NCBI RefSeq assembly: GCF_038562415.1
Contig: NZ_JBCFBA010000034.1
Span: forward strand, 1-33,508
Reading direction: 5' to 3'
From: Solidesulfovibrio sp.
GTDB taxonomy: Bacteria > Desulfobacterota > Desulfovibrionia > Desulfovibrionales > Desulfovibrionaceae
Length of the DNA: 33,508 nucleotides
Every line of letters begins with the position of its first letter. Position 1 is the stretch's first letter. Shown piece by piece: positions 26,783 through 33,508 of this stretch. The notes below the pieces were generated by a model. It saw nothing but the letters and a program-made list of their open reading frames with translations, did no database searches and was not told the DNA's origin. The translations under genes were made by a program, and so were the position numbers.

Positions 26783-26945
26783 GGACGTCACCTCCTTGGC
26801 CGCGACCCCGGCGGCGGGTGGCGCGGCAGGCGGCCAGGATAACCACGAGCCGCCACGGGCGGCAAGGCCGCGCCCGGCCGCAAAAAGCGTGGGGCACAAC
26901 GCCCGGCGATTGACGGCCCGGTGACAAGGCGGCTAGTCCTTGGCC

Positions 26946-28687
<1,742 letters not shown>

Positions 28688-28691
<4 letters not shown>

Positions 28692-30130
28692 CCGCCGCCC
28701 CGACCCCCGCCTTCGGCATCCTGCTCGTGGACGACGAGCCGGCCTGGCTGCGCTCCCTGTCGCTGACGCTGGAATCCGCGGCCGGCATCACCAACACCTT
28801 CCTGTGCCAGGAAAGCCGCGACGTCCTGCCGCTTTTGGAAAAAGGCGGCATAAGCCTGGTGCTCCTCGACCTGACCATGCCGGGCCTGTCCGGCGAGGAA
28901 CTGCTGGCCGCCATCGCCGAGCGCCATCCCGACGTGGCCTGCATCATCGTCAGCGGCGTCAACCAGATCGACACGGCCGTGCGCTGCATGAAGCTCGGGG
29001 CCTTCGACTACTACGTCAAGACCGACGAGGAGGACCGCATCGTCGGCGGCGTGGCCCGGGCCATCCGCATGCTGGAGCTTCGCGACGAGAACCGGGCCGT
29101 CAAAAGCCGGCTGGTGGCCGGCGGCCCGGCCCATCCCGAGGCCTTTGCCGGCATCGTCACCCGCTCGCGGGCCATGCTCTCGGTGTTCGCCTACATCGAG
29201 GCCGTGGCCCAAAGCCCCCAGCCGCTGCTGGTGACCGGCGAATCGGGCGTGGGCAAGGAGAACCTGGTGCGGGCCGCCCATGCCGTGAGCTCCCGCGACG
29301 GGCCGCTCGTGGCCGTCAACGTGGCCGGCCTCGACGACGCGGTTTTCGCGGACACGCTGTTCGGCCACGTCCGGGGGGCCTACACCGGGGCCGAGGCGCC
29401 GCGCCGGGGCATGGTCGAGGAGGCCGCCGGCGGGACGCTGTTCCTCGACGAGATCGGCGACCTGGCCGTCGCCTCCCAGGTGAAGCTGCTGCGCCTGCTC
29501 CAGGAGGGCGAATATTTCGCCCTGGGCAGCGATCAGCCCAAGCGGCTGCGGGCCCGGGTCATCGTGGCCACCCACCGCGACCTGGCCGCCGACGAGGCCG
29601 ACGGGAAATTCCGGCGCGACCTCTATTTCCGGCTGCGCACCCACCATGTCCACATCCCGGCCCTGCGGGAGCGCAAGGAGGACATCGAGCCGCTTTTGCG
29701 CCATTTCCTGGACGAGGCCGCCACGGCCATGGGCAAGCCCAGGCCCACCCCGCCGCCGGAGCTGGCCGCCTGCCTGGCCGCCTACCCCTTCCCCGGCAAC
29801 ATCCGGGAGCTGCGGGCCATGGTCTTCGACGCCGTGAGCCTGCACACCGGGCGCATGCTGTCCATGAAAAGCTTCCTGGCCGCCATCGGCCGGACCAGGC
29901 CCTGCCCGGCCGCGCCGCCGCCCAACCCCTTTGCCCCCTTCGAGCGGCTGCCCACCTTCGCCGAGGCGGCCCGGTTTTTGGTGGACGAGGCGCTGGCGCG
30001 CTCGGGCGGCAACCAGACCCTGGCCGCGCGGCTGCTCGGCATCTCCCAGCCGGCGCTGAGCAAGCGCCTCAAGCACGCCGCCGCCGGCAACCCCCATAAC
30101 CCCGGCAATGGCCATAACCAGGGGTTATAG
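28688..30130 (+). CDS. Sigma-54-dependent response regulator (NtrC type)
   Basis: 480-residue enhancer-binding protein. The receiver domain (1-120) has phospho-acceptor Asp61 and Lys111; the usual Pro after that Lys is Thr. The AAA+ domain (about 155-385) has Walker A GESGVGK (184-190), a sigma-54 contact loop reading GAYTGA (230-235) in place of GAFTGA, and Walker B LFLDEI (251-256). A Fis-type helix-turn-helix lies at about 440-462 (GNQTLAARLLGISQPALSKRL). The start is a GTG overlapping the kinase stop. The last dozen residues (NPHNPGNGHNQ) are encoded by palindromic DNA that looks like binding sites. It probably activates the sigma-54 promoter at 30.27 kb. Confidence 0.95.
30086..30130 (+). 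promoter_or_regulatory. Two enhancer-like palindromes (UAS sites A and B)
   Basis: Site A (30094-30111) reads CCATAACCCCGGCAATGG, 16 of 18 bases like the perfect palindrome at site C. Site B (30112-30130) reads CCATAACC-AGG-GGTTATAG. They lie 145-180 bases upstream of the -24 element and overlap the 3' end of the activator gene. Binding by that activator is inferred. Confidence 0.65.
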
Positions 30131-30172
30131 CGGGTAACACCCTCTCTTCAAAAACTTTTTTCTCTTCCTTCG

Positions 30173-30207
30173 GGCAACCCCCCATAACCCCGGTTATGGG
30201 GGTTGCC
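30173..30207 (+). promoter_or_regulatory. Large perfect palindrome (UAS site C)
   Basis: Core CCATAACCCCGGTTATGG (30182-30199) is a perfect palindrome, extended to 15-bp arms (GGCAACCCCC.ATAACC and its complement, with one extra C on the left). Its left arm repeats the 20 bases at 30086-30105. It lies about 85 bases upstream of the sigma-54 promoter. As RNA it would fold into a strong hairpin and could also end the activator transcript, but no T-run follows. Confidence 0.7.
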
Positions 30208-30272
30208 GGCCCGTTGCCGGGTCTTTCAATAATTCCACTGTCATTCAAGCAAGTTACCAATCCGACACCGGA

Positions 30273-30290
30273 CTGGCACCCATCCTGCTT
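30273..30290 (+). promoter_or_regulatory. Sigma-54 (-24/-12) promoter
   Basis: CTGGCACCCATCCTGCTT has GG at 30275-30276 and GC at 30287-30288 with exactly 10 bases between, matching the TGGCAC-N5-TTGC pattern except for one base. It lies about 130 bases before the transporter start and downstream of the enhancer-like palindromes. Confidence 0.82.
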
Positions 30291-30333
30291 TGGGACGCCA
30301 CACAGGCTGTTCCGCCATGCGGCCTTACTTCGG

Positions 30334-30364
30334 CCGGGCGTGGCGTTTCCCGCGCCACGCCCGG
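30334..30364 (+). other. Leader hairpin before the transporter gene
   Basis: Perfect 12-bp stem (CCGGGCGTGGCG and complement) with a seven-base loop, in the 5' untranslated region predicted from the sigma-54 promoter. No T-run follows, so it is more likely a stabilising or regulatory stem than a terminator. Confidence 0.6.
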
Positions 30365-30418
30365 AAATGCCCCGAACGGCGGACGGTTCCGAAACGACGC
30401 AGCCCAAAGGAGCCTCCC

Positions 30419-31849
30419 ATGCAACGCGCCATCAAAGCCCTGGCCCCGATCCTGCTCGGTCTGCTGATCTGGGCGCTACCCGCCCCCCAAGGCCTCACCC
30501 CCGCCACCTGGACCTACTTCGCCCTGTTCGCGGCGGTGGTGCTGGCGCTGGTGCTCGAACCCGTTCCCCCGGCCCTGGCCGGGCTTCTTGGCGTCACGGT
30601 GGCCACCGTCCTGCGCCTGGTGCCCGTGACCCCGGGCAAGGCGCCTTCGCCGGGCGACGCCATCAAGTGGTGCCTGTCGGGCTTTTCCAACGGCACGGTC
30701 TGGCTGATTTTCGCCGCCTTCATGTTCGCCCTGGGCTACGAGAAAACGGGCCTCGGCAAGCGGCTGGGGCTCACGCTGATCCGGCGCATGGGCAGAAAGA
30801 CCCTGGGCCTGGGCTACGCCGTGGCCCTGGCCGACCTGATCCTGGCGCCGTTCATGCCGTCCAACACCGCCCGAAGCGGCGGCACCATCTTTCCCATCAT
30901 CAAGAACATTCCGCCGCTGTACGGCTCCACGCCCGAGAACAACCCCCGGGGCCTGGGCGCCTACCTCATGTGGACGGCCCTGGCCACCACCTGCGTCACC
31001 TCCTCCATGTTCCTGACCAGCCTGGCCCCCAACGTCCTGGCCCAGTCCCTGGTGGAAAAGACCGCCCACGTGAGCCTCGGCTGGAACCAGTGGTTCCTCA
31101 GTGTGCTGCCCGTGGGCGTCATCCTGTTTCTGGCCACGCCGCTTCTGGCCTACGTCCTCTACCCGCCCACCCAGAAGACCTCGGAAAACGCCCCGATCTG
31201 GGCGGCCGAGGAACTGCGCAAGCTCGGGCCGCTGACCGGCCGCGAGGTCACCATGGCCGCCCTGGCCGTCTGCGCCCTGCTCGGCTGGATCTTCCTCAAG
31301 GATTTCGTCGACGCGACCACCGTGGCCCTGGCCGCCATCTGCGTCATGTGCCTGGCCAGGGTCGTCACCTGGGAGGACGTCATCGGCTACAAGCAGGCCT
31401 GGAACGTGCTGGCCTGGTTCGCCACCCTGGTCACCCTGGCCGACGGCCTGGGCAAGACCGGCTTTCTCAAGTGGTTCGCCGAGGCCGCCTCGACCCACAT
31501 GCAGGGCCTGTCCCCCACGGCCACCCTGCTTGGCCTCACCGTCCTGTTTTTCGTCAGCCACTACATGTTCGCCAGCGTCACCGCCCACGTGGCCGCGCTG
31601 TTGCCGGTCATGCTGGCCGCGGCCATGGCCGTGCCCGGGCTCGATATCGCCACCGCCTCCATGGTCCTTTGCGCCACGCTCGGCATCATGGGGATCATCA
31701 GCCCCTACGGCACCGGCCCTTCGCCCATCTATTTCGGTTCCGGCTACATCAAGGGCAAGGAATTCTGGGTGCTGGGCGCCATCTTCGGCGTCATCTACCT
31801 GGGCGTGTTCCTGCTCGTCGGCTTCCCCTGGATTCTGTCCCGGGCCTAG
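30419..31849 (+). CDS. DASS-family dicarboxylate transporter
   Basis: 476-residue polytopic transporter of the divalent anion:sodium symporter family, close in pattern to the CitT/TtdT antiporter branch. About twelve hydrophobic helices are seen, with the two substrate-site motifs PSNTARSGGTIFPII and SPYGTGPSPIYFGSGYI. Branch members exchange dicarboxylates such as tartrate, malate, fumarate, citrate or 2-oxoglutarate for succinate. The ATG at 30419 follows AAAGGAG. It is the first gene of a probable operon under the sigma-54 promoter; fumarase genes follow after 29 bases, pointing to malate or fumarate as substrate. Confidence 0.92.
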   Translation: MQRAIKALAPILLGLLIWALPAPQGLTPATWTYFALFAAVVLALVLEPVPPALAGLLGVTVATVLRLVPVTPGKAPSPGDAIKWCLSGFSNGTVWLIFAAFMFALGYEKTGLGKRLGLTLIRRMGRKTLGLGYAVALADLILAPFMPSNTARSGGTIFPIIKNIPPLYGSTPENNPRGLGAYLMWTALATTCVTSSMFLTSLAPNVLAQSLVEKTAHVSLGWNQWFLSVLPVGVILFLATPLLAYVLYPPTQKTSENAPIWAAEELRKLGPLTGREVTMAALAVCALLGWIFLKDFVDATTVALAAICVMCLARVVTWEDVIGYKQAWNVLAWFATLVTLADGLGKTGFLKWFAEAASTHMQGLSPTATLLGLTVLFFVSHYMFASVTAHVAALLPVMLAAAMAVPGLDIATASMVLCATLGIMGIISPYGTGPSPIYFGSGYIKGKEFWVLGAIFGVIYLGVFLLVGFPWILSRA

Positions 31850-31878: not shown

Positions 31879-32718
31879 ATGCGTACCATCCCCCGCGAGA
31901 CCGTCGTCGACGCCGTGGCCGCCCTGTGCGTCGACGCCAACCGCTTCCTGCCCGCCGACGTCCTGGCTTCCTTTGCCCGGGCGCAGGCGGCCGAAACCCT
32001 GCCGGCGGCCAGGGAGATCTTCAGCCAACTGACGCAAAACGCCGCCCTGGCCGCCGAGACCGGCCTGCCGCTGTGCCAGGACTGCGGCCTGGGCGTGTTC
32101 TTCGTCGAGGTGGGCGAGGACGTCCGCCTGGCCGACGGCTCCCTGCGCGAAGCCATCAACGCCGGCATGGTCAAGGGCTACCGGGAAGGGTTCCTGCGCA
32201 AGTCCACCTGCGATCCGTTCAGCCGCAAAAACGTCGGCGACAACTCCCCGGCCGTCGTCCACTTCGACCTCGTGCCCGGGGACACGCTCAAGATCTGCAT
32301 GATGGCCAAGGGCGGCGGCTCGGAGAACATGTCCCGGGTCACGATGCTCGCCCCGGCCCAGGGCTGGAAGGGCATCCGCGAATGCGTCATCCGCCGCGTG
32401 GCCGAGTCCGGCTCCAACCCCTGCCCGCCCGTCCTCGTCGGCGTGGGCATCGGCGGCAACTTCGAACTCGCGGCCATCAACTCCAAAAAGGCCCTCCTGC
32501 GCGCGGTGGACGACGTCCACCCCGACCCCGAGGTCGCGGCCATGGAAGCCGACCTGTTCGCCTCCATCAACCGCCTGGGCATCGGCCCCATGGGCCTTGG
32601 CGGGCGAACCACCTGCCTTGGCGTCAAGGTCAGGGTCGCGCCCTGCCACCTGGCCAGCCTGCCGCTGGCCATCAACATCCAGTGCCACAGCGCCCGGCAC
32701 AAGGAGGTCACGCTCTGA
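31879..32718 (+). CDS. Class I fumarate hydratase, alpha subunit
   Basis: 279-residue catalytic subunit of the two-subunit, [4Fe-4S] class I hydro-lyases, which interconvert malate and fumarate. The three expected cluster cysteines are in PLCQDCG, NPCPPV and TTCLGVKV; KGGGSENMS is also conserved. L(+)-tartrate dehydratase (TtdA) belongs to the same family and cannot be excluded, but the length fits the fumarase alpha subunits of anaerobes. The ATG follows GGAG. The beta subunit gene follows with a one-base overlap (TGATG). The cluster is expected to be oxygen-labile, in keeping with an anaerobe. Confidence 0.93.
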   Translation: MRTIPRETVVDAVAALCVDANRFLPADVLASFARAQAAETLPAAREIFSQLTQNAALAAETGLPLCQDCGLGVFFVEVGEDVRLADGSLREAINAGMVKGYREGFLRKSTCDPFSRKNVGDNSPAVVHFDLVPGDTLKICMMAKGGGSENMSRVTMLAPAQGWKGIRECVIRRVAESGSNPCPPVLVGVGIGGNFELAAINSKKALLRAVDDVHPDPEVAAMEADLFASINRLGIGPMGLGGRTTCLGVKVRVAPCHLASLPLAINIQCHSARHKEVTL

Positions 32719-33272
32719 TGGCCGAATACCACCTGACCACCCCCCTTCGCGACGCGGAGGTGGAAATGCTGCGCGCCGGCGACGTGGCGCTGCTTACCGG
32801 CGTCATCTACACCGGCCGCGACGCCGCCCACAAACGCCTGGTCGAGGCCCTGGACGCCGGCCGGGAACTGCCGTTTCCGCCCAAGGGCGCGGTCATCTAC
32901 TATGTCGGCCCCTCGCCGGCCCGGCCCGGCTATCCCATCGGCGCGGCCGGCCCCACCACCAGCTACCGCATGGATTCCTACGCCCCCAGGCTCCTGGCCG
33001 AGGGCGTAAAGGGCATGATCGGCAAGGGCATGCGCGCCCCGGAGGTCAAGGCGGCCATGATCGCGCGCAAAGCCGTCTATTTCGGGGCCACCGGCGGCGC
33101 CGGGGCGCTCCTTGGCCTTCGCATCAAGGAAGCCAGGATCGTCGCCTACGAGGACCTCGGCCCCGAGGCCGTGCGCGAGCTTGTCGTCGTCGCTTTCCCG
33201 GTCCTGGTCATCAACGACTGCCTCGGCGGCGACCTCTACGCCACGCCCGACCTGGAGGCCGCCCTTGGCTAA
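32718..33272 (+). CDS. Class I fumarate hydratase, beta subunit
   Basis: 184-residue partner of the preceding alpha subunit, equivalent to the C-terminal domain of single-chain class I fumarases. Typical segments are LTTPLRDAEVEMLRAGDV, GVIYTGRDAAHKR, YYVGPSPARPG and the GPTTSYRMDSYAPRLL motif that helps form the active site. The strong AAGGAGGT before the start lies within the alpha gene, and the stop and start overlap, so the subunits should be made in equal amounts. A tartrate dehydratase beta subunit is the alternative reading. Confidence 0.93.
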   Translation: MAEYHLTTPLRDAEVEMLRAGDVALLTGVIYTGRDAAHKRLVEALDAGRELPFPPKGAVIYYVGPSPARPGYPIGAAGPTTSYRMDSYAPRLLAEGVKGMIGKGMRAPEVKAAMIARKAVYFGATGGAGALLGLRIKEARIVAYEDLGPEAVRELVVVAFPVLVINDCLGGDLYATPDLEAALG

Positions 33273-33305: not shown

Positions 33306-33508
33306 ATGAGCGGCCACAAAGCGATCTACAAATCATTGTATTTCTGGGTCATCTTCGGCATCGTCGCCGGCATCGTCCTCGGCCTCATCCCGGCCACCAA
33401 GGGCTTCGCCGAATCCATGCAGCCCTTCGGCACCGCCTTTATCCGCATGGTCAAGATGATCATCGCCCCGATCATCTTCTGCACCGTGGTCACCGGCATC
33501 GCCAAGAT
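33306..33508 (+). CDS. dctA: DctA-type dicarboxylate:cation symporter (partial)
   Basis: First 67 residues of a dicarboxylate/amino acid:cation symporter; the gene runs off the window. It shows [20 protein letters not shown], the first membrane helix, then [22 protein letters not shown], a hallmark of the DctA/GltP family. The ATG follows AAGGAG. Located 33 bases after the fumarase beta gene, it probably belongs to the same operon as a second uptake route for C4-dicarboxylates. DctA rather than GltP is inferred from context and the YKSLYF start. Confidence 0.88.

What the first reader, a model, noticed from the sequence alone, without database searches (positions are those of the whole stretch)
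30086..30290. Self-contained sigma-54 control region for a C4-dicarboxylate operon
A near-consensus -24/-12 promoter (GG-N10-GC, 30273-30290) sits upstream of transporter, fumarase and symporter genes. Three palindromes of the type CCATAACC-N2/3-GGTTATGG lie 85-180 bases upstream, right beside the gene for an NtrC-type activator. The layout predicts that the activator binds these sites. This specific operator sequence and its regulon are, as far as I know, undescribed.
Basis: partly seen in the sequence, partly recalled or inferred. Interest (0 to 1): 0.75.

Follow-up and report, generated by a model that had tools for sequence, protein, structure and literature searches.

The report
Sigma-54 enhancer for a dicarboxylate operon
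This stretch looks like a conserved DNA switch by which a two-component sensor turns on genes for taking up and using malate- or fumarate-like acids; the layout recurs in related sulfate- and metal-reducing bacteria in front of different transporters, so it is probably real, but it belongs to a known type of control.

Summary
Window 30094-30199 carries three palindromes of the type CATAAC-N4/5-GTTATG (one perfect, two imperfect), followed by a -24/-12 element (30274-30289) and a DASS transporter / class I fumarase / DctA-like operon, directly behind a sensor kinase and NtrC-type activator. Relatives in Desulfovibrionaceae and Geobacter-type bacteria share the layout: two palindromes 18-19 bp apart, a third 67-71 bp on, the promoter about 92 bp after that. 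In the 50 relatives (window included) with this half-site, the three slots hold sites in 47, 40 and 33 cases, against 4 of 450 control slots. The array precedes DASS, DcuB or DctA genes, and in four loci stays with dcuB 2.3-4.7 kb from the activator gene. Paralogues with other half-sites have changed recognition helices (19 of 20, against 0 of 50), but independent events are few and their geometry is less clear. Best reading: the activator binds this array and drives sigma-54 transcription of C4-dicarboxylate uptake. Sigma-54 control of Geobacter dcuB with an activator gene upstream was already published; the operator I did not find in the papers searched. There are no binding or expression data.

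The parts
26940..28691 (+). sensor histidine kinase: periplasmic SBP_bac_3 domain, HisKA, HATPase_c (start codon uncertain)
   Evidence: Pfam; SBP domain matches PDB chain 3h7m_A 'Sensor protein', E 5.5e-94
28688..30130 (+). NtrC-type response regulator: receiver, AAA+ sigma-54 activation domain (GAYTGA loop), Fis-type HTH; candidate activator
   Evidence: Pfam; whole-genome search
30094..30111 (.). distal palindrome 1, CCATAACC-CC-GGcaATGG (right arm degenerate), inside the 3' end of the regulator gene
30112..30130 (.). distal palindrome 2, CCATAACC-AGG-GGTTATAG; contains the regulator's stop codon
30182..30199 (.). proximal palindrome, perfect CCATAACC-CC-GGTTATGG, within a longer inverted repeat 30173-30207
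30274..30289 (+). sigma-54 type -24/-12 element TGGCACCCATCCTGCT
   Evidence: similar position relative to the sites in relatives
30334..30364 (+). G+C-rich inverted repeat in the presumed untranslated leader
   Evidence: I6
30419..31849 (+). DASS-family anion symporter (presumed dicarboxylate transporter), first gene of the presumed operon
   Evidence: Pfam Na_sulph_symp; NCBIfam dass TIGR00785
31879..32718 (+). class I fumarate hydratase, alpha part
32718..33272 (+). class I fumarate hydratase / Fe-S hydro-lyase, beta part
33306..33508 (+). DctA-like dicarboxylate:cation symporter, cut by the contig end
   Evidence: Pfam SDF above cut-off; NCBIfam DctA model below cut-off for the 67-residue fragment

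Best explanation
The region is the enhancer and promoter of a C4-dicarboxylate uptake and fumarase operon. The membrane sensor kinase (periplasmic SBP_bac_3 domain) detects a carboxylate, probably a C4-dicarboxylate (inferred), and phosphorylates the NtrC-type regulator encoded next to it (inferred from adjacency and domains). Regulator dimers bind a distal block of four half-sites (CATAAC-N4/5-GTTATG twice, 18-19 bp apart) and a proximal palindrome about 70 bp further on, assemble into the active AAA+ ring, and by DNA looping remodel sigma-54 RNA polymerase at the -24/-12 element, which starts about 92 bp after the start of the proximal site. This switches on transporter, fumarase and symporter. 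Shown: sequence elements, their conservation and geometry in relatives, co-occurrence with the regulator, association with dicarboxylate transporter families. Inferred: binding, activation, operon structure, ligand.
For: Geometry: in 50 loci with the CATAAC half-site, sites with at most 3 of 12 mismatches fill distal slot 1 in 47, distal slot 2 in 40, proximal slot in 33; 4 of 450 control slots do. Without assuming a sequence, exact 6/6 palindromes fill distal 1, the junction of the distal sites, distal 2 and proximal in 16, 30, 20 and 21 of 71 loci; control slots mean 1.0, maximum 3, n=104. The exact 16-mer is in 9 of 149 family genomes, 8 of them among the 26 of 149 with the regulator (Fisher p 2.5e-6). 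First gene downstream among the 50: DASS 10, DcuB 18, DctA 19, one DctA-like, two unassigned. In L023, L025, L027 and L051, where dcuB begins 2.3-4.7 kb after the regulator, the array lies directly before dcuB. Half-site class and recognition-helix start agree in 69 of 70 loci. rpoN is present. SBP-type kinase upstream in 53 of 53 loci tested. In G. sulfurreducens dcuB has an RpoN promoter by primer extension and an activator gene upstream (PMC2725144, passages).
Against: No binding, footprint or expression data. The -24/-12 match alone is not above chance. 24 of 71 loci have no exact palindrome in any of the three site slots, 13 of them CATAAC loci. The proximal site has more than 3 mismatches in 17 of 50. 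Helix/half-site agreement rests on few independent events: 2 contrasts on well-supported branches, 4 on the best tree, sign test not significant; L064 (Anaeromyxobacter) keeps the usual helix with another half-site. Geometry of the other half-site classes is clear only for CTTAAC distal sites (distal 2 exact in 7 of 8, proximal in 0 of 8); CATGCC, CATTCC and CATAGC loci rarely have exact palindromes in the slots. 31 of 102 non-redundant regulator loci had no such promoter within 620 bp: 3 are cut by contig ends, 9 showed a candidate CATAAC-type site with promoter somewhere in the locus (one weak, L020), 19 showed none. The 50-locus set was chosen by half-site counts upstream of the promoter. 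The ligand is untested. Nine other two-mismatch sites in this genome and two were not examined for promoters.
Confidence: 0.87

Rival explanations
1. The palindromes are RNA hairpins: a terminator or attenuator for the sensor/regulator transcript, not protein-binding DNA.
For: The 3' region folds strongly as RNA (-84.9 kcal/mol, z -4.7); the proximal site here sits in a longer inverted repeat, and in some relatives such as L005 and L006 it is followed by T-rich DNA.
Against: No terminator-like site in 29900-30500 (0 found, 0.8 in shuffles). The array keeps its distance to the -24/-12 element, and in four loci lies before dcuB 2-5 kb away from the regulator gene. The half-site sequence is conserved, not only the pairing, and the 2-3 base gap between the 7-8 base arms is tight for a hairpin loop (general knowledge).
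Confidence: 0.06
2. The sites are real operators but for a different protein (a repressor or another activator), the neighbour being coincidental.
For: Binding is not shown; 18-19 bp between the distal centres is not a whole number of helix turns.
Against: 8 of 9 family genomes with the exact site carry this regulator. Regulators with altered recognition helices have altered half-sites in 19 of 20 loci, and three close paralogues in Citrifermentans bremense R1 have three different arrays (the third read by eye).
Confidence: 0.06
3. The palindromes are a dispersed genomic repeat or chance inverted repeats.
For: Two of three sites are imperfect; a 21-base stretch is repeated at 30091 and 30179.
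Against: One perfect copy in 5.07 Mb, at this place; shuffles expect 0.02 in the window; conserved position in relatives.
Confidence: 0.01

Closest known systems
Geobacter sulfurreducens dcuB (GSU2751) RpoN-dependent promoter with an activator gene upstream (PMC2725144; abstract and passages seen)
   Same: C4-dicarboxylate transporter, sigma-54 promoter by primer extension, activator gene upstream; probably the same regulator family, since Geobacter-type relatives in hand have regulator, array and dcuB in this order
   Different: The passages seen name no specific activator for dcuB and no operator; the G. sulfurreducens sequence itself was not examined here; the window drives DASS, fumarase and DctA-like genes instead of DcuB
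Geobacter bemidjiensis sensor/regulator pairs beside dcuB, dctA and a porin (PMC2996986; sections 9 and 21 read)
   Same: Periplasmic-binding-type sensor kinase plus response regulator 5' of dcuB and of dctA; [quoted passage not shown]
   Different: No operator described in those sections; unspecified multicopy sequence features are drawn in a figure that is not held; sulfate reducers not covered
DctB/DctD of rhizobia (recalled; search listing only)
   Same: NtrC-type regulator and sigma-54 promoter control dicarboxylate uptake (dctA)
   Different: DctB senses with a PAS-like/PDC periplasmic domain (recalled), here SBP_bac_3; operator and target set differ
Desulfovibrio vulgaris sigma-54 regulome (PMC4641369, sections 5 and 6 and passages; PMC3333781, section 4 part 1, section 6 and passages)
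   Same: Same order of bacteria; activators often beside their target promoters; one sigma-54 operon (DVU2822-2825) holds dicarboxylate transporter genes with pyruvate formate-lyase
   Different: That operon is assigned to the single-component DVU2827, and in PMC3333781 also listed as a target of a response regulator; no activator in the table is assigned to fumarase genes; 'fumarate' and 'malate' occur 0 times in both texts; motif logos are figures and could not be compared

Membership tests
sigma-54 (-24/-12) promoter | GG-N10-GC within TGGCAC-N5-TTGCW | tested here: met
   30274-30289, one mismatch; GG and GC ten apart
sigma-54 (-24/-12) promoter | rpoN in the genome | tested here: met
   TIGR02395 449.6 bits, cut-off 277.35
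sigma-54 (-24/-12) promoter | transcript start about 12 bases after the GC element, lost without rpoN | not testable with these tools
   needs RNA and mutant
NtrC-family response regulator (bacterial enhancer-binding protein) | receiver + AAA+ sigma-54 activation domain + Fis-type HTH | tested here: met
   PF00072, PF00158, PF02954 above cut-off
NtrC-family response regulator (bacterial enhancer-binding protein) | sigma-54 contact loop GAFTGA or tolerated variant | tested here: met
   GAYTGA read by eye from 29360-29420; related variants GAYTDA and GAYTGS are counted as tolerated in PMC4641369
NtrC-family response regulator (bacterial enhancer-binding protein) | binds inverted repeats upstream of the promoter | not testable with these tools
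   only indirect: conserved array and helix/half-site agreement
DctB/DctD system | sensor with PAS-like/PDC periplasmic domain (recalled) | tested here: not met
   SBP_bac_3 found and no such domain at E up to 0.001
DctB/DctD system | controls a DctA-type dicarboxylate symporter from a sigma-54 promoter | tested here: inconclusive
   DctA-like gene is fourth after the promoter and cut by the contig end; DctA is the first gene in 19 of 50 CATAAC loci
a named regulator equivalog (NtrC, AtoC, ZraR, ...) | score above the NCBIfam cut-off | tested here: not met
   none of the 25 best shown of 77 matches reaches its cut-off; best 299.6 against 558.6 for ntrC

The most novel reading that the evidence does not exclude
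A portable sensor/regulator/enhancer cassette for C4-dicarboxylates in sulfate- and metal-reducing bacteria: one near-invariant three-palindrome geometry to which unrelated transporters (DASS, DcuB, DctA) have been attached more than once, and whose paralogues insulated themselves by matched changes in recognition helix (QPAL to A/P-PAL, QSAL, QPSLW) and half-site (CATAAC to CTTAAC, CATGCC/CATTCC, CATAGC). If confirmed it would give a natural specificity code for NtrC-type HTH domains and name the activator of the Geobacter dcuB promoter. The odds were lowered from 0.5 to 0.45 on rechecking, because the geometry is clear only for the CATAAC and, distally, the CTTAAC class.
Probability: 0.45. 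Interest if true: 0.6.

Novelty: new member of a known kind. Interest (0 to 1): 0.45.

Why it matters
Fumarate/succinate exchange by DcuB is described as essential for fumarate respiration in G. sulfurreducens, and its RpoN promoter was mapped in 2009, the passages seen noting only that an activator gene lies upstream (PMC2725144). The conserved array gives a concrete candidate operator for the neighbouring activator in metal reducers and sulfate reducers alike. The paralogue series offers a testable link between recognition-helix residues and half-site bases of enhancer-binding proteins.

Tried and rejected
Terminator reading: no terminator-like site, and in four loci the array lies with dcuB rather than with the regulator; rejected as main reading. 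Dispersed repeat: rejected. IHF site between array and promoter: strict consensus in 2 of 71 loci, 0 in the control stretch; not supported as a fixed element. A larger regulon: no second exact site in this genome; in G121 a second exact site (L101) reads as a hairpin followed by T-rich DNA between genes, with no -24/-12 noticed by eye, and the site in G019 (L094) lies in what reads as coding sequence, so both are taken as chance (by eye). Finding the source genome of PDB 3h7m: 29 of 48 genomes searched had matches at E up to 1e-90, best identity shown 70%, source not found; the paper on that structure is not held.

Literature limits: ten searches of open-licence PMC papers only, each seen as a listing of at most 20; one search listed 10 of 1,438 and 10 of 272. 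Supplements and closed papers were not available. Passages only were seen of PMC7962754, PMC12316311, PMC3543383, PMC2700814, PMC545781 and PMC3831638; none shown describes this operator. PMC12316311 does report sigma-54 control of dicarboxylate symporters in Proteobacteria; PMC2700814 mentions putative regulator binding sites curated in pairs, whose letters were not shown, so overlap is not excluded.

Choices that bear on counts: of 120 regulator loci I dropped before counting six judged distant (L002, L003, L124, L126, L127, L129) and four duplicates (L130, L131, L132, L134), then eight near-copies; the equally distant L138 and L139 stayed in. Class labels come from half-site counts between -200 and -60; the control slots are from the same loci. 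Transporter labels of L133 and L136 were set by hand; the helix of L018 was set by hand because the pattern missed it; L021 was anchored on its second promoter match. The scan of the 31 promoterless loci sought only CATAAC-type sites.

Full report
What is there. The window is a whole 33,508-base contig of a 5.07 Mb genome whose best-matching named relatives are Solidesulfovibrio. At its end lie a sensor kinase (26940-28691; SBP_bac_3, HisKA, HATPase_c), an NtrC-type response regulator (28688-30130; receiver, AAA+, Fis-type HTH), a DASS transporter (30419-31849), the two parts of a class I fumarase (31879-32718 and 32718-33272) and the first 67 codons of a DctA-like symporter, cut by the contig end. 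Between regulator and transporter is a -24/-12 element, TGGCACCCATCCTGCT, at 30274-30289. Upstream of it are three palindromes: 30094-30111 (right arm degenerate), 30112-30130 and 30182-30199 (perfect).

Chance. Two matches to CCATAACC-N2-GGTTATGG with at most 3 mismatches are seen, 0.02 expected. The perfect 16-mer occurs once in the genome, at 30183-30198; with 2 mismatches allowed there are 11 places, 2 for the reversed control pattern. With a 3-base gap there are 3 places, one of them site 2, and 3 for the control. The promoter motif alone is not above chance (7 seen, 15.1 expected); what makes it credible is its place relative to the sites in relatives.

Conservation. Of 316 regulator relatives found, the best 80 were kept. 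With loci from whole genomes I had 120 regulator loci including the window; after the drops named under Tried and rejected 102 remained. In 71 of 102 a -24/-12 element lies within 620 bp after the regulator; in 31 it does not. In the 71, exact 6/6 palindromes of any sequence fill distal slot 1 in 16, the junction of the two distal sites in 30, distal slot 2 in 20 and the proximal slot in 21; control slots have 1.0 on average, at most 3. But 24 of 71 have no exact palindrome in the three site slots, 13 of them CATAAC loci. Fifty loci use the CATAAC half-site. In these, sites with at most 3 of 12 mismatches fill distal slot 1 in 47, distal slot 2 in 40 and the proximal slot in 33; control slots 4 of 450. 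Where both distal sites are good they start 18 (19 loci) or 19 (21 loci) bases apart; where distal 2 and proximal are good they are 67-71 bases apart (25 loci). Window values are -179, -161 and -91 relative to the promoter match.

Linkage to regulator and transporter. The exact 16-mer is present in 9 of 149 family genomes, the regulator (E at most 1e-140) in 26 of 149; 8 of the 9 have both (Fisher p 2.5e-6). In seven of these a site is beside the regulator; in G109 the contig ends between them, and the piece L100 shows site, promoter and, by eye, a Dcu-like gene start. The ninth (G019) is a site within apparent coding sequence. Downstream of the CATAAC arrays are DASS (10), DcuB (18), DctA (19), one DctA-like and two unassigned genes. 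Within the Solidesulfovibrio part of the tree three loci (L009, L107, L109) have DcuB where the others have DASS, with the same half-site class. In L023, L025, L027 and L051 dcuB begins 2.3-4.7 kb after the regulator and the array with promoter lies directly before dcuB; L048, and L036 with a CTTAAC-type site, show similar arrangements before DctA. This separates the array from the regulator's 3' end and argues against a terminator.

Helix and operator. Other regulators in the set go with other half-sites: CTTAAC (8 loci), CATGCC (7), CATTCC (3), CATAGC (2), one unclear. All 50 CATAAC loci have QPA at the start of the presumed recognition helix; 19 of 20 others do not (L064 is the exception). 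On a tree built from the first 400 residues, without the HTH, the half-site class changes 6-7 times. Only 2 contrasts on well-supported branches are independent (4 on the best tree), so this is suggestive and not statistically established. The slot geometry is clear for CTTAAC distal sites (junction 8 of 8, distal 2 in 7 of 8, proximal 0 of 8 exact) but not for the smaller classes. Citrifermentans bremense R1 has three close regulators and a fourth at 48% identity: dcuB with CATAAC, dctA with CTTAAC, and one before a gene that reads like a porin with a CTATAG-type array (third by eye), which parallels the three pairs reported for G. bemidjiensis (PMC2996986).

Sensor. All 53 promoter-bearing loci with at least 2 kb upstream have an SBP-type kinase there. 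In 74 SBP domains (75 loci had enough upstream DNA) the arginine that in amino-acid binding relatives holds the carboxylate (role recalled) is kept in 73, while the position aligned by eye with the aspartate that holds the alpha-amino group (role recalled) is alanine in 74 of 74. This fits a carboxylate without alpha-amino group and so a C4-dicarboxylate, but is inference. A solved homologue exists, 3h7m_A.

Mechanism. Kinase senses dicarboxylate, phosphorylates the regulator, which binds distal block and proximal site, forms the ring and activates sigma-54 polymerase by looping. The elements and their conservation are shown; binding, activation, operon structure and ligand are inferred. rpoN is present.

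Known and new. PMC2725144 (abstract and passages) reports by primer extension an RpoN promoter for G. sulfurreducens dcuB and an activator gene upstream. PMC2996986 (passages, sections 9 and 21) reports sensor/regulator pairs 5' of dcuB and dctA. The D. vulgaris surveys PMC4641369 and PMC3333781 (parts named under Closest known systems) have a sigma-54 dicarboxylate transporter/pyruvate formate-lyase operon under another regulator and no mention of fumarate or malate. Ten literature searches, seen as listings, showed no paper on this operator; their limits are given under Tried and rejected. I therefore file it as a new member of a known kind: an NtrC-type, sigma-54 dependent dicarboxylate switch that works like DctB/DctD but lacks a DctB-type sensor domain.

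Noticed in passing
window 30086-30130: The regulator's last codons (...NPHNPGNGHNQGL) are encoded by distal sites 1 and 2, with the stop codon inside site 2; near relatives L004-L006 stop earlier (...KPS), just before or at the first site.
   Followed up: partly
window 30300-30418: Presumed leader with a G+C-rich hairpin (30334-30364); relatives L004-L006, L103 and L104 have a hairpin of different sequence at a similar place (by eye).
   Followed up: no
L003 (G000:C7, regulator paralogue 48% identical): Another sensor/regulator pair in the same genome is followed by palindromes of GTCAAC type, two 18 bases apart (one mismatch each) with an exact one between them and one nearer a -24/-12 match, then an ORF that reads like a flavoprotein oxidoreductase.
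   Followed up: partly
proximal region in relatives, e.g. L014, L028, L033: CCCCTTC-like sequence near the proximal slot in 13 of 71 loci, 0 in a control stretch; absent at the window's proximal site. Unexplained.
   Followed up: partly
L017, L118-L121, L128: A paralogue group with CATGCC half-sites and a -24/-12 element; the downstream gene was not matched by my five reference proteins (DASS, DcuB, DctA, two fumarase parts).
   Followed up: no
L101 (G121): A lone exact CATAACC-N2-GGTTATG between genes, followed by T-rich DNA, looks like a terminator: single sites can be chance (by eye).
   Followed up: partly
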